DNA from: an uncultured Sulfolobales archaeon | GTDB lineage: Archaea > Thermoproteota > Thermoprotei_A > Sulfolobales > NBVN01 | DNA: 64,000 bases | Reading direction: 5' to 3' | NCBI GenBank assembly: GCA_937949785.1 | Contig: CALEDH010000001.1 | Coordinates: 124,001 to 188,000 of the forward strand | Part shown: positions 4,421 through 54,387 of the stretch, piece by piece | Numbering within the stretch: the first letter of the stretch is position 1 | Layout: each line of letters starts with the position of its first letter | Notes under the pieces: generated by a model | The model's input: the letters and a program-made list of their open reading frames with translations, nothing else | What the model was told of the DNA's origin: nothing | The model's database searches: none | Position numbers and translations under genes: made by a program

Positions 4421-4510
4421 GCCGGGGTGGCCGAGCGGCCTAAGGCGGCGGGCTGCAGTGATTGTTAGAAACCCGTTTATCCGCGGGTTCGAATCCCGCC
4501 CCCGGCTCCA
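4421..4510 (+). tRNA. tRNA-Cys (GCA) with intron
   Basis: The acceptor arms GCCGGGG and CCCCGGC close the cloverleaf. The D arm, a GCGGG/CCCGT anticodon stem and a T arm (GCGGG-TTCGAAT-CCCGC) are all present. The anticodon loop is enlarged to 19 nt. Removing about 12 nt (4459-4470, after position 37) leaves CTGCAGA with anticodon GCA (4455-4457). The acceptor sequence matches archaeal tRNA-Cys, and the absence of a long variable arm excludes Ser and Leu. The variable loop may be 6 nt. TCCA is encoded at the 3' end. A TATA-like AATTTAAAAATC lies about 28 nt upstream. Confidence 0.85.
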
Positions 4511-11828: not shown

Positions 11829-11924
11829 GGCCGCGGTAGCTCAGTCTGGAAGAGCGCGGGACTGTGGGCTCCTGACGGGGTGGAAATCCCGAGGTCCCGG
11901 GTTCAAATCCCGGCCGCGGCCCCA
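11829..11924 (+). tRNA. tRNA-His (GTG) with intron and encoded G-1
   Basis: The acceptor stem GCCGCGG/CCGCGGC is preceded by an encoded G (11829) that can pair with C73 (11921), the His identity pair. The anticodon stem is CGGGA/TCCCG. The 25-nt loop reads CTGTGG, then an 18-nt intron (11868-11885), then A, giving anticodon GTG (11864-11866). The T arm is CCGGG-TTCAAAT-CCCGG, and CCA is encoded. The intron is GC-rich, as needed for a bulge-helix-bulge splice structure. A TATA-like AATTTAAG lies near 11791. Confidence 0.93.
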
Positions 11925-19359: not shown

Positions 19360-21594
19360 TTAGAGGAGTGATATGCTATGTTTTGGGAGCCTCTGCCTTA
19401 TCCTACTACCCCATTCATCATAGAATTTAATTATTTGTTGTGATAGTGATGGTTTAACAATACTTAGAGCTGTATTGAAGTGGGCTAAGCTTACCTTATC
19501 TATGTTTACATTCTCTCTTAATGCGGTTAATGCCGCCTCTTTTACTAATGCCTCTAGATCTGCTCCTGAATACCCCTCAGTCAGTTCTGCTAGTCTTTCA
19601 AGACTTACATCATCTGCTAGTGGGACCTTCTTAGTATGTACTTTAAGTATTTCTAATCTAGCGTTTCTATCGGGTGGCGGTACGTATATCATTTTATCAA
19701 ACCTACCAGGTCTTAATAAGGCTGGGTCTATTAGGTCAGGCCTGTTAGTAGCACCTACTACTACAACGTTCCTCAACTTCTCAATACTATCTAACTCTGT
19801 TAGTAGTTGACTTACTATCCTCTCAATCACATGCGTACCTTCGAAGACATCCCTAGTCGGTGTGATAGAGTCTACCTCATCTAGGAATACGATTGTAGGG
19901 GCGTATATCCTAGCCTTCTTAAAGATTTCTCTAACAGCTCTTTCAGACTCACCTACCCACTTACTAAGTATTTCAGGGCCTTTAACCGCTATGAAGTTAG
20001 CCCCAGACTCGGTGGCTACTGCCTTAGCTAGTAACGTCTTACCGCAGCCCGGAGGACCGTAAAGCAAAACACCTTTAGGAGGTTCAATACCTAACCTCTT
20101 AAAGCTTTCCGGGTATTTAAGCGGCCACTCAATAACCACCCTTAACTGATCCTTAACCTCTTCTAAACCCCCTATATCAGACCACTTCACCTCAGGTACC
20201 TCCATGTAGACCTCTCTGAGACCGCTAGGTGTTACCTCATTTAACGCATGTATGAAGTCATCCATGATAACCTCCATAGAATCTAGAAGTTCGATCGGTA
20301 TTTCACTCCTCGAGAGATCTACCTTAGGTAAGTACCTTCTTAGAGAGTTAAGTGCTGCTTCCTTAGCTAAGGAAGCTATATCAGCACCTGTATACCCATG
20401 AGTTATTTCAGCAATCTTAAGTAGATCTACGTCCTTACTGAGCGGCATGCTCCTGGTGTGGATTTGAAGTATTTCAAGACGTCCCTGCTTATCTGGAAGT
20501 GGTATCTCTATTTCCCTATCAAACCTACCAGGCCTCCTTAAAGCAGGGTCTAAAGCATGCGGTCTATTAGTAGCACCTATCACTATGACATCGCCCCTAC
20601 TCTCCAACCCATCCATCAACGCCAGTAACTGAGCTACGACCCTCCTCTCAACTTCTCCAACAACTTCATCCCTCTTAGGGGCTATCGCGTCAATCTCATC
20701 AATAAATATAACTGATGGAGAGTGCTTCTTAGCGTCTTCGAATATCTCCCTCAACCTAGCCTCACTCTCCCCGTAGAACTTACTCATAATCTCAGGTCCG
20801 TTAATCGCTATGAAGTAGGCATCTATCTCGGTGGCTACTGCCTTAGCTAGTAACGTCTTACCGCAGCCCGGAGGACCGTAAAGCAAAACACCTTTAGGAG
20901 GTTCAATACCTAACCTCTTAAAGAGTTCTGGGTATTTTAGTGGAAGTTCAACTAACTCACGCATTCTCTCAATAACATGCTTCATACCACCTATGTCCTC
21001 ATAAGTTATTCTTAGGGTTTTAGCGAACTCAGCCGGCCTCTTAATGATGATTATCTTAGTTGTATCCTTAACCACTACAGGCCCTGCGGGATTAGTCTGA
21101 ATGACGATGAAAGGTACTGACTGCCCCAATACCGGTATTAATATGTTATCGCCTTCGAGGATGGGGTAATCCATCAACCTCCTTAACACATAGCTGGTAA
21201 AGCTTGTGTCCGGAGATATTGAATAGGAGGGAGATGATATAGCTAACTTAACGATAAGTGCTTCCCTAGCATTAACAGCCACTATAGTTACTTTATCCCC
21301 AATACTCACACCGGCGTTCTTCCTTATTATACCGTCCATCCTTATGATTCCCTTACCTTCATCTTCAGGGTAGTTAGGCCATACAACAGCCACTGTAGCC
21401 CTCTTACCGACAATTTTAATAACATCGCCTACCTCAACACCTAACTCCCTCATAACGCTTAAATCTACTCTGACCTTACCTCTGCTCGCGTCTTTCTGCT
21501 TAGCCTCAGCAACCCTTAACACCACCTCCTTCTTAACCCTCTGCTGAGGTGTTATAGGTCTCTCAGGGTCGTCGTTATCAGACTCATCTGTAAT
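19360..21594 (-). CDS. cdc48: Cdc48/VCP/p97-type AAA+ ATPase, probable AUU start
   Basis: Hexameric unfoldase acting with the proteasome. An N domain is followed by two AAA+ modules, each with [17 protein letters not shown] and a FIDEID or FLDEVD Walker B. No ATG lies near the N-terminus. The GTG at 21525 falls next to AAGGAG with no spacer and would cut off the KKEV that normally precedes VLRVAEAK. An ATT at 21594 lies 6 nt after AGGTGA (raw 21601-21606), soon after a GTTTAAAATT box. I place the start there; 21525 is the conventional choice. Confidence 0.9.
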
Positions 21595-33116: not shown

Positions 33117-33190
33117 GGGCCCGTAGCTCAGCCAGGTAGAGCGCCGGGCTCATAACCCGGTGGTCCGGGGTTCGAATCCCCGCGGGCCCA
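33117..33190 (+). tRNA. tRNA with CAT anticodon (Ile2 or elongator Met)
   Basis: The acceptor is GGGCCCG/CGGGCCC with A73, the anticodon stem CCGGG/CCCGG with loop CTCATAA, and the T arm CGGGG-TTCGAAT-CCCCG. CCA is not encoded and there is no intron. The acceptor and D-arm sequence are like archaeal tRNA-Ile2, whose C34 is modified to agmatidine by TiaS, and TiaS is encoded at 55464. Elongator Met is not excluded. It is not the initiator, which has an AGCGGGG-type acceptor. TATA-like ACTTAAAAAG lies near 33083. Confidence 0.92.
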
Positions 33191-33196
33191 CTAGCC

Positions 33197-52350: not shown

Positions 52351-53526
52351 TCACCTACCTAAGAACCATTCTGAGGTATTCCCAATATAGCCTCCTTCCT
52401 CAACATCGCCGATGAATTTTAAGATTATCCCCCTGATGTCGTTGGGGTTTACATCAACACCTGCTAGGCCGGCTATCACACCTCTAACTACGACTTTATT
52501 ACTTAACCCATATGTCCTGGCTAATACCTCACTATGTATATGTCCTAACGAGCCTAGAGAGACTGATTTATCGAATACTAGGACTCCTTTAACACTACTC
52601 ATAGCTTTTGTTAAGTCTTCTTCGGGGAAGGGTCTGAAGAACCTTACCTTAAGTACACCTACATCATAGCCATTACTTCTTAACTCATCACATACGTCCT
52701 TCATAGTGCCTACCCAACCACCCATAGCTACTATTAAGTACTTACTATCATCACATCTATAACATTCTGTTAAACCACCGTAACTCCGCCCAGTTAATTT
52801 CTCATACTCTCTATCAACTTCTTTAATGACTTCCTTAGCGTTCTCCATAGATTTATGTATATCATATCTCATAGTAGCTACGTCCTCAGCGTTAGATAGG
52901 TTACCCATAGTTAGGATGTTATCCGAACACATGTTATATGGTTGTGACCTAGGTTTGAGGAAGGACTTAATTACGTCTTCATCTGGTATGTCTACGGGTT
53001 CTGATGTGTGGCTTAGTAGGAAGCCGTCAAAACCTAACATACCTGGTAGGTAGACCTCCTCATCTTCAGTAATCCTATATAATTGTATCGTAGTATCTAA
53101 GATTTCCTGGTTATTCTCAGCTAGCGCCATTAACCAACCGCAATCTCTTTGACCCATGAAGTCTGTATGCTCACTCCATATATTCCAAGGAGGTCCTACG
53201 GTCCTAGTAACTACTGCTAAGACCATAGGTACCCTACTACCAGCAACCCACCAAAGCATTTCATGTGCGAAGAGTAGTCCGTGTGATGATGTAGCTGTGA
53301 ATGCTCTAGCCCCGCATAACGCTGCTCCGTAAGCAGCTGCCAGCGCTGCAAACTCTGATTCAACCCTCATTAACCTAGCCTTAATTAACTTCATATCTAC
53401 GAACTCGCTTAACCTCTCAACAATAGTTGTTTGAGGTGTTATCGGGTAAGCTGTTATTAGGTCAACGTTAGATAGTCTAACAGCTTCCGCAACCGCGTAA
53501 TTACCTGTTAAAACCTTGGTAACCAT
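52351..53526 (-). CDS. porA: 2-oxoacid (pyruvate):ferredoxin oxidoreductase alpha subunit
   Basis: A 391-residue subunit with YPITPQT near residue 42, the TSSHGLLFAHEMLWW segment and a C-terminal domain with LGSLGHIHSEV. It catalyses CoA-dependent oxidative decarboxylation with reduction of ferredoxin, together with beta, gamma and delta. GAGGTAG lies before the ATG, in the end of porD. Confidence 0.95.
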   Translation of the reverse strand: MVTKVLTGNYAVAEAVRLSNVDLITAYPITPQTTIVERLSEFVDMKLIKARLMRVESEFAALAAAYGAALCGARAFTATSSHGLLFAHEMLWWVAGSRVPMVLAVVTRTVGPPWNIWSEHTDFMGQRDCGWLMALAENNQEILDTTIQLYRITEDEEVYLPGMLGFDGFLLSHTSEPVDIPDEDVIKSFLKPRSQPYNMCSDNILTMGNLSNAEDVATMRYDIHKSMENAKEVIKEVDREYEKLTGRSYGGLTECYRCDDSKYLIVAMGGWVGTMKDVCDELRSNGYDVGVLKVRFFRPFPEEDLTKAMSSVKGVLVFDKSVSLGSLGHIHSEVLARTYGLSNKVVVRGVIAGLAGVDVNPNDIRGIILKFIGDVEEGGYIGNTSEWFLGR

Positions 53527-53537
53527 GATGGACTACC

Positions 53538-53801
53538 TCACTCTTCGACCATTGTGATCGCCTTAGCCGGGCATATGTTGGAGCATATACCGCAGCCCTT
53601 ACAGTAGTCATAGTTGATCTCTACGTATTCGTTAGGGCTGTCTAATATGTTAATAGATGAGTCTGGGCAGTACAGCCAACATAACCCACACCTAATACAC
53701 TTACTGTGGTTTACTTCTGGTTTCTTAAATCTCCAATAACCAGTCCTACCTGCAACACCTATAGCAGGCCTTGAGATAGGTAGTTTACATGTTTTACTCA
53801 G
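53538..53801 (-). CDS. porD: 2-oxoacid:ferredoxin oxidoreductase delta subunit (2x[4Fe-4S]), CUG start
   Basis: An 87-residue ferredoxin-like subunit with SKTCKLPISRPAIGVAG at the N-terminus and two clusters: CIRCGLCWLYCP (35-46) and CKGCGICSNICP (67-78). Between the upstream stop and these motifs there is no in-frame ATG, GTG or TTG; the first sits at residue 84. A CTG at 53801-53799 lies 7 nt after GAGGTG (raw 53809-53814) and yields the normal PorD N-terminus. I therefore call a CUG start. It overlaps porG by 8 bp and is followed by porA. Confidence 0.88.
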   Translation of the reverse strand: MSKTCKLPISRPAIGVAGRTGYWRFKKPEVNHSKCIRCGLCWLYCPDSSINILDSPNEYVEINYDYCKGCGICSNICPAKAITMVEE

Positions 53802-54387
53802 CTTCGCTCACCTCATCGTAAGCTATTTTAATAGCCTTTACGTTAAGCTCTAATAAATCACCATGTAGGTACTCCCTAACACTCCTAATCAAATCATCTA
53901 CATTAACCAAACCTGTAACCTTTGAAAAAGCACCTAACATCGGCATGTTAACTAATGACCAACCGGTGAAGAAGAGCCCTAACTTCCTCACTATATCATT
54001 AGCGTTTATGTAGAAAATCCTATACCTATCTGATGTTCTGATCTTAAATTGAGTATTAATAATTAGAGTGCCGCCGTCCCTAACATCCTGACTAATGTTA
54101 AGGATCTCGTATAACTTGTGGTCGAAGATGATAGCTATGTCTGGTTTTACGTTAGTATATCTAGACCTTACCCTCTCCCTAGAAATTCTAACGGATGCTG
54201 TGACTGGTGCACCCCTCCGTTCAGCACTGAAAAAAGGGTATGCCTGACCCCATAGCCCAGCTATACATACGGCTCTGACTAACACGTTAGCCGCGGTTAC
54301 GACTCCTTGACCACCCCTACCGTACAACTTTACATTTACTTCCTTATTATTACCAATTAATATAAAACACCATTTATAACATATCAA
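53794..54387 (-). CDS. porG: 2-oxoacid:ferredoxin oxidoreductase gamma subunit
   Basis: A 197-residue subunit with the family YGRGGQGVVTAAN near residue 22 and a SAERRGAPVTASVRIS segment. First gene of the operon. The in-frame TTG at 54387 adds a cysteine-rich head unlike PorG, which normally begins a few residues before the GRGGQG motif. The real start is likely downstream, near the GTA/AAT codons that follow a second TATA-like box, and may also be a non-standard codon. Confidence 0.9.
   Translation of the reverse strand: MICYKWCFILIGNNKEVNVKLYGRGGQGVVTAANVLVRAVCIAGLWGQAYPFFSAERRGAPVTASVRISRERVRSRYTNVKPDIAIIFDHKLYEILNISQDVRDGGTLIINTQFKIRTSDRYRIFYINANDIVRKLGLFFTGWSLVNMPMLGAFSKVTGLVNVDDLIRSVREYLHGDLLELNVKAIKIAYDEVSEAE

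What the first reader, a model, noticed from the sequence alone, without database searches (positions are those of the whole stretch)
53538..53814. porD can only be expressed from a CUG start
The delta subunit is intact with both 4Fe-4S motifs and the normal N-terminus, yet between the upstream TGA and residue 84 there is no in-frame ATG, GTG or TTG. CTG at 53801-53799 lies 7 nt after GAGGTG. Standard gene finders would miss the gene and report an oxidoreductase without its delta subunit.
Basis: partly seen in the sequence, partly recalled or inferred. Interest (0 to 1): 0.7.

Follow-up and report, generated by a model that had tools for sequence, protein, structure and literature searches.

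The report
CUG-started porD among near-AUG starts
In this uncultured archaeon the gene for a small iron-sulphur subunit of pyruvate:ferredoxin oxidoreductase very probably starts with CUG, and it is one of a sizeable set of genes in this lineage that start with codons (CUG, ACG, AUU, AUA) which standard gene finders never consider.

Summary
On the minus strand porD (53801..53538, 87 aa, two 4Fe-4S motifs) has no in-frame ATG/GTG/TTG before residue 84, and CTG lies 7 nt after GAGGTG. In three genera the start region aligns without gaps: CTG here, ATG in congener G001, TTG in G004. dN/dS against G001 is 0.075. CUG initiation at the ancestral start site is the best reading (about 0.85). A one-base assembly error cannot be excluded for this codon alone.

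porD is not isolated. In 404 orthologue pairs with G001, roughly 10 genes per genome (2.5-3%) lack a canonical start but carry a near-cognate suited to initiation. Where the Shine-Dalgarno match is strong, the codon at the right spacing is CTG, ACG, ATA or ATT in 9 of 12 cases (P about 2e-8 against codon usage; 1 of 22 in the other frames). A second POR gamma gene keeps an ATT start in four genera, ruling out assembly error there. aIF1 and aIF1A genes are present. The lineage thus appears to tolerate near-cognate starts when a Shine-Dalgarno sequence positions them. All of this is sequence inference; no protein data were available.

The parts
53808..53814 (-). Shine-Dalgarno GAGGTGA, shared with the 3' end of porC
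   Evidence: sequence; conserved as ATGAGGT(G) in G001 and G004
53799..53801 (-). proposed CUG start codon of porD
   Evidence: aligns with ATG in G001 and TTG in G004, G011 and others; SD spacing is the genome's mode
53538..53801 (-). porD, delta subunit of the pyruvate/2-ketoisovalerate:ferredoxin oxidoreductase family, 87 aa plus stop
   Evidence: TIGR02179 104.6 bits; PDB 9bt4 chain G, POR subunit delta, E 3.5e-21
53667..53699 (-). first 4Fe-4S motif CIRCGLCWLYC
   Evidence: translation; Pfam Fer4 families
53571..53603 (-). second 4Fe-4S motif CKGCGICSNIC
   Evidence: translation; Pfam Fer4 families
53794..54387 (-). porC, gamma subunit; stop TAA (53796-53794) overlaps codons 2-3 of porD; true start unsettled (TTG 54387, or a near-cognate about 14 codons downstream)
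   Evidence: TIGR02175 166 bits, the profile beginning at residue 18 of the TTG-started protein; alignment with G001
52351..53526 (-). porA, alpha subunit, ATG start
   Evidence: best NCBIfam match PorA_Arch, 402.9 bits
51459..52346 (-). porB, beta subunit, ATG start
   Evidence: NF008818 434.8 bits, over its cut-off; PorB NF008819 375.7 bits
5337..6287 (-). ncsA/ttuA-like tRNA thiolation gene, proposed AUA start (6287-6285) behind GGTGG; same ATA in G001; first canonical codon lies 43 codons into the open frame, after the CxxC zinc finger
   Evidence: NcsA model matched from its position 2
19360..21594 (-). CDC48-family ATPase with a conserved 23-residue N-terminal extension, proposed AUU start (21594-21592) behind GAGGTGA; GTG 21525 remains possible
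   Evidence: extension matched in G004 and G006 from residue 5; TIGR01243 begins at residue 24

Best explanation
porD is translated from the CUG at 53801. The start site is inherited: relatives use UUG, GUG or AUG there, and in this species the codon's first base is C. A good Shine-Dalgarno sequence (GAGGTGA) inside the end of porC, at the usual spacing, places initiator Met-tRNA over the CUG, probably helped by translational coupling because the porC stop overlaps porD codons 2-3. The product starts with Met, is complete, and joins alpha, beta and gamma as the ferredoxin-like subunit. This is one case of a wider tolerance in the lineage for start codons one base away from AUG (CUG, ACG, AUU, AUA) when an SD is present. 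Shown: conserved site, conserved SD, purifying selection, absence of canonical codons, and the set of other genes with the same pattern. Inferred: actual initiation at CUG, Met as first residue, coupling, and the cause of the tolerance.
For: Ungapped start-region alignment in three genera with CTG/ATG/TTG at one site and TTG, GTG or ATG at or near it in most family orthologues. SD spacing equals the mode of 260 canonical starts. dN/dS 0.075-0.116. Same genome: CTG at C1:61532 of a ThermoDBP-related gene, where G001 has ATG; ACG at C8:165907 in methionine synthase, G001 ATG; ATT at C8:228572, G001 GTG. In the congener: ACG for GTG twice (C11:104667, C33:145790), ATT for GTG (C44:165254), ATA for ATG (C33:121301). 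With SD of 6 nt or more, 9 of 12 codons at spacing 3-5 are CTG/ACG/ATA/ATT against 7.9% expected, P 2e-8; other frames 1 of 22. porC-2 (G000 C7:17332) starts ATT GAG ATT directly after or behind GGTGG in G000, G001, G004 and G006, without any canonical codon upstream.
Against: No reads, transcript or peptide data. G000 is a 29-contig assembly, 87% complete, and no second assembly of the species was found. CUG is expected to be a weak start. The 12 strong-SD cases were drawn from genes already selected for lacking canonical starts, some loci may be indel errors, and several such genes (threonine synthase-like C8:225787, C7:61656, C8:117785) show no near-cognate at the expected place.
Confidence: 0.83

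Rival explanations
1. Assembly or sequencing error: the real codon is TTG (or ATG/GTG) and was called CTG.
For: The nearest other genus has TTG in almost the same context. G000 is a draft assembly.
Against: Other genes of the same assembly show CTG, ACG, ATA or ATT at aligned start sites, and porC-2 shows ATT in four independent assemblies, so near-cognate starts exist here anyway. The rest of porD is free of errors.
Confidence: 0.08
2. PorD is made as a gamma-delta fusion by a +1 frameshift near the end of porC (GAA GCT GAG TAA), so no start codon is needed.
For: porC stop overlaps the porD start, and the delta frame is open back to the TGA 2 codons upstream of the CTG.
Against: Relatives have a separate delta gene with its own canonical start and SD at the same place. 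The delta frame is closed by TGA only 2 codons upstream, so slippage would have to fall in a window of about three codons. No slippery sequence is conserved in the three-genus alignment.
Confidence: 0.03
3. This copy is not expressed; a paralogous delta subunit serves the complex.
For: Two further delta-like genes exist in the genome, with ATG starts.
Against: They are 54-55% identical, and each lies beside its own gamma gene. The window copy has dN/dS 0.075 against the congener and sits between intact porC and porA.
Confidence: 0.03
4. mRNA is edited C to U (CUG to UUG, ACG to AUG), as at some plant organelle starts, so initiation is canonical.
For: Both CTG starts and the ACG starts would become canonical by one C-to-U change.
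Against: ATA and ATT starts, including the four-genus ATT of porC-2, are not explained. I know of no archaeal mRNA editing of this kind (own knowledge).
Confidence: 0.02

Closest known systems
PorD_KorD delta subunits (TIGR02179) of archaeal 2-oxoacid:ferredoxin oxidoreductases
   Same: Length, two 4Fe-4S motifs, porC-porD-porA-porB order, conserved N-terminal block
   Different: Start codon CTG instead of ATG/GTG/TTG
Rare non-AUG/GUG/UUG starts in prokaryotes, such as E. coli infC and pcnB with AUU (own knowledge); CTG, ATT, ATA and ATC are listed as possible starts in NCBI table 11
   Same: Near-cognate codon behind a Shine-Dalgarno sequence
   Different: There a handful of often regulatory cases. 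In 61,358 reconstructed AUG starts of 36 genome triplets only 2 changed to CUG and 1 to AUU, and 1 of 2,468 UUG starts to CUG (PMC5622118; built on annotated starts, hence biased low). Here about 8 of some 270 aligned start sites differ this way between two species, and ACG, not in table 11, occurs three times at clean sites
CTG-started small ORFs in Methanosarcina mazei found by Ribo-seq (5% of unannotated sORFs; PMC11456600)
   Same: CUG initiation in an archaeon
   Different: Small unannotated ORFs in a distant archaeon; here conserved housekeeping enzymes
TTG-dominated starts of Aeropyrum pernix (52% TTG by N-terminal proteomics; Yamazaki 2006 as cited in PMC5911459)
   Same: Relaxed first-base requirement with SD in a crenarchaeon
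   Different: A. pernix report covers only ATG, GTG and TTG

Membership tests
PorD_KorD delta subunit (TIGR02179) | Score above the curated model cut-off | tested here: met
   104.6 bits against 60.05, residues 10-87 on model 2-77 of 78
PorD_KorD delta subunit (TIGR02179) | Two CxxCxxCxxxCP 4Fe-4S motifs | tested here: met
   CIRCGLCWLYCP and CKGCGICSNICP; Fer4 models over cut-off
PorD_KorD delta subunit (TIGR02179) | Gene cluster with gamma, alpha and beta subunits | tested here: met
   porC, porA, porB flank it
Near-cognate (non-ATG/GTG/TTG) translation start | No canonical codon between the upstream stop and conserved protein sequence | tested here: met
   None before residue 84; 84 aligned codons upstream of it, 64 identical to G001
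Near-cognate (non-ATG/GTG/TTG) translation start | Codon one base from AUG at SD-proper spacing and at the orthologous start site | tested here: met
   CTG; spacing 5; aligned with ATG and TTG
Near-cognate (non-ATG/GTG/TTG) translation start | Initiation at that codon with Met shown by peptide or ribosome data | not testable with these tools
   No proteome or Ribo-seq data for this organism in reach
Loss of start-codon discrimination through loss of aIF1 or aIF1A | Missing aIF1 or aIF1A gene | tested here: not met
   SUI1 80.7 bits and eIF-1a 77.7 bits, one each in G000, over cut-off; G001 aIF1 looks normal

The most novel reading that the evidence does not exclude
A clade of Sulfolobales-order archaea (at least genera g1, g4 and g6 here, perhaps also the complete genome G031) has a relaxed start-codon requirement: with a Shine-Dalgarno sequence in place, any of CUG, ACG, AUU and AUA serves as start in about 2.5-3% of genes, including conserved enzymes, so that these genes are truncated or missing in all automatic annotations.
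Probability: 0.6. Interest if true: 0.75.

Novelty: new variant of a known kind. Interest (0 to 1): 0.58.

Why it matters
If right, several percent of genes in an archaeal lineage begin with codons that Prodigal and similar programs exclude by design, so proteins are lost (PorD, an ATT-started POR gamma) or lose N-terminal domains (the zinc finger of the NcsA-like enzyme). It also gives a natural system for asking how archaeal ribosomes and aIF1 check the start codon. An aIF1 that discriminates against non-canonical starts was reported from Sulfolobus (Hasenohrl, cited in PMC8211752), yet here aIF1 is present and near-cognates, even ACG, are kept by selection in conserved genes.

Tried and rejected
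Loss of aIF1 or aIF1A as the cause: both genes are present. Altered initiator tRNA: the one Met-anticodon tRNA in the window (33117-33191) begins with G1 and looks like an elongator or Ile2 tRNA; the initiator tRNA was not in the sequence sampled, so this is open. Controls actually run: pairs of G000/G001 with G002, G004, G007, G031 and G057 gave few but non-zero canonical-start failures in those genomes too (for example aIF1A of G031, ATA behind AAGGTGA), so the trait is probably not confined to one genus; several other flagged rows there were antisense shadows or tRNA-type conservation and were discarded. Some flagged genes of G000 turned out to have ordinary starts (C8:214182, C8:176405, C8:241017). 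Candidates left unresolved: LeuRS C1:85649 (TTT against TTG, or ATT), threonine synthase-like C8:225787, C7:61656, dph6-like C1:56743, HerA-like C1:66697, C8:117785 (possible one-base indel). I first typed a partly guessed gamma sequence as a query; the later search used the exact reference. Literature searches for archaeal AUU/ACG/CUG starts found no report of this pattern in Sulfolobales; the library holds open-licence papers only.

Full report
Observation. The minus-strand frame downstream of porC reads TGA (53810-53808) GCG AAG CTG AGT AAA ACA and then runs open to TGA 53540-53538. No ATG, GTG or TTG occurs before residue 84 counted from CTG, and GAGGTG ends 7 nt before the CTG. The ORF tool with the three usual start codons does not list the gene. 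The protein is a full delta subunit: TIGR02179 104.6 bits over a cut-off of 60.05, both 4Fe-4S motifs, and a match to the delta chain of a solved POR (9bt4). porC, porA and porB are intact around it.

Is CTG the start? In 30 family and order relatives the delta gene was read back to its upstream stop. TTG, GTG or ATG stands at or within a few codons of the same place in nearly all. In G004 (public contig JAJHRE010000094.1 by equal length) and G001 (JANXEN010000001.1) the nucleotide sequences around the start align without a gap: GATGAGGTGAGCGAAG-CTG here, AATGAGGTATATGAAG-ATG in G001, GATGAGGTGAGGGAGG-TTG in G004. So the site, the SD and the spacing are inherited and only the codon differs. 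The spacing to the SD core GGAGGTGAT is 5, the mode of 260 confident canonical starts in this genome (156 ATG, 57 GTG, 47 TTG). dN/dS is 0.075 and 0.116, so the protein is used. porD is thus a normal gene with an odd start codon.

Is it an error? G000 is a draft of 29 contigs and 87% completeness, and the only evidence for C at this base is that assembly. I therefore asked whether the genome has other such starts. About 657 kb of G000 were compared with about 1.03 Mb of G001, giving 404 orthologue pairs. In 25 G000 genes and 20 G001 genes at least 10 conserved codons precede the first canonical codon. Some of these are ordinary or unresolved, but many are clear. Where one species has a canonical start and the other has none, the aligned codons are CTG (porD), CTG (C1:61532), ACG (C8:165907), ATT (C8:228572) in G000, and ACG (C11:104667), ACG (C33:145790), ATT (C44:165254), ATA (C33:121301) in G001. 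All eight are one base from AUG; at internal positions aligned with ATG, GTG or TTG only 14-40% of non-canonical codons are of that kind, and ACG is 0.3-3%.

A second test used only genes with no canonical start and an SD match of at least 6 nt, taking the single in-frame codon at spacing 3-5. Nine of 12 are CTG, ACG, ATA or ATT, against a summed codon frequency of 7.9% (binomial P 2e-8). In the other two frames it is 1 of 22. The genes were chosen for lacking canonical codons, but nothing in that choice favours near-cognates at SD spacing. The P value treats the genes as independent and was not corrected for my choice of the four codons after seeing the data; the looser test with all seven near-cognates gives 1e-5.

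A case that cannot be an assembly error is the second POR gamma gene (G000 C7:17332). In G000, G001, G004 and G006, four assemblies of three genera other than each other at species level, the reading frame has ATT GAG ATT AGR TGG CAT GGT with GGTGG upstream and no ATG, GTG or TTG in front; about 24 other relatives have a canonical codon just upstream of EIRWHGRG. The same clade shows ATA at the NcsA-like gene of this window (6287, both g1 species), where the canonical alternative would remove the zinc finger, and the NcsA model begins at position 2 there. CDC48 in the window (ATT 21594) has a conserved extension in four genera, but a GTG at 21525 is a possible start and the CDC48 model begins there, so I rate it lower. 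In G031, a single-contig genome of 1,875,953 bases (from memory the size of Ignisphaera aggregans; not verified), aIF1A begins with ATA behind AAGGTGA, though an internal ATG exists. In G004 a further CTG aligns with a TTG of G001.

How it works. The likely mechanism is ordinary SD-directed initiation by Met-tRNAi on a near-cognate codon. For porD the SD lies in the last codons of porC, whose stop overlaps porD codons 2-3, so re-initiation by the terminating ribosome is probable (inferred). Why the lineage tolerates such codons is unknown: aIF1 and aIF1A are present, and the initiator tRNA was not sampled.

Comparison with what is known. Non-AUG/GUG/UUG starts are known but rare: in 36 prokaryote groups only a few switches to CUG or AUU were seen among tens of thousands of starts (PMC5622118), though annotation bias lowers that number. 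Prodigal excludes ATA, ATT and CTG by design (PMC2848648). Ribo-seq in M. mazei gave CTG for 5% of unannotated small ORFs (PMC11456600). A. pernix uses TTG for 52% of starts (PMC5911459). A current review of archaeal initiation speaks only of AUG, GUG and UUG (PMC7531240). What is new here is the frequency, the conserved housekeeping genes, and ACG.

Limits. The rate of 2.5-3% per genome is my count of convincing cases; the upper bound from the same scan is about 5-6%. Nothing here shows protein.

Noticed in passing
window 54345-54387 (-): porC, the first gene of the operon, has no canonical codon at the family's usual start; TTG 54387 adds about 15 residues without counterpart, and AAG GAA GTA at the expected place is shared with G001. 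Start unresolved.
   Followed up: partly
window 6287 (-): NcsA/TtuA-like gene has ATA at its proposed start in both g1 species; the first canonical codon would delete the CxxC zinc finger.
   Followed up: yes
window 21594 (-): CDC48-family ATPase carries a conserved N-terminal extension (ITD...TPQQRVKKE) that begins at ATT behind GAGGTGA; GTG 21525 is the annotated-type alternative.
   Followed up: partly
L132:5907 (-), G000 C8:165907: Archaeal methionine synthase with ACG (ATA one codon earlier) where G001 has ATG, behind GGAGGTG.
   Followed up: yes
L204 (G031 C1 near 1041317, -): Initiation factor aIF1A itself appears to start with ATA behind AAGGTGA in a complete genome.
   Followed up: partly
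G000 C8:225787 (-) and C7:61656 (+): A threonine synthase-like gene and another gene have strongly conserved N-termini with neither canonical nor near-cognate codons at the expected place.
   Followed up: no
window 4421-4510 and 11830-11924 (+): ARAGORN reports two tRNA genes with four-base anticodon loops (gcag, gtgg), probably tRNAs with an unrecognised intron or unusual loop.
   Followed up: no
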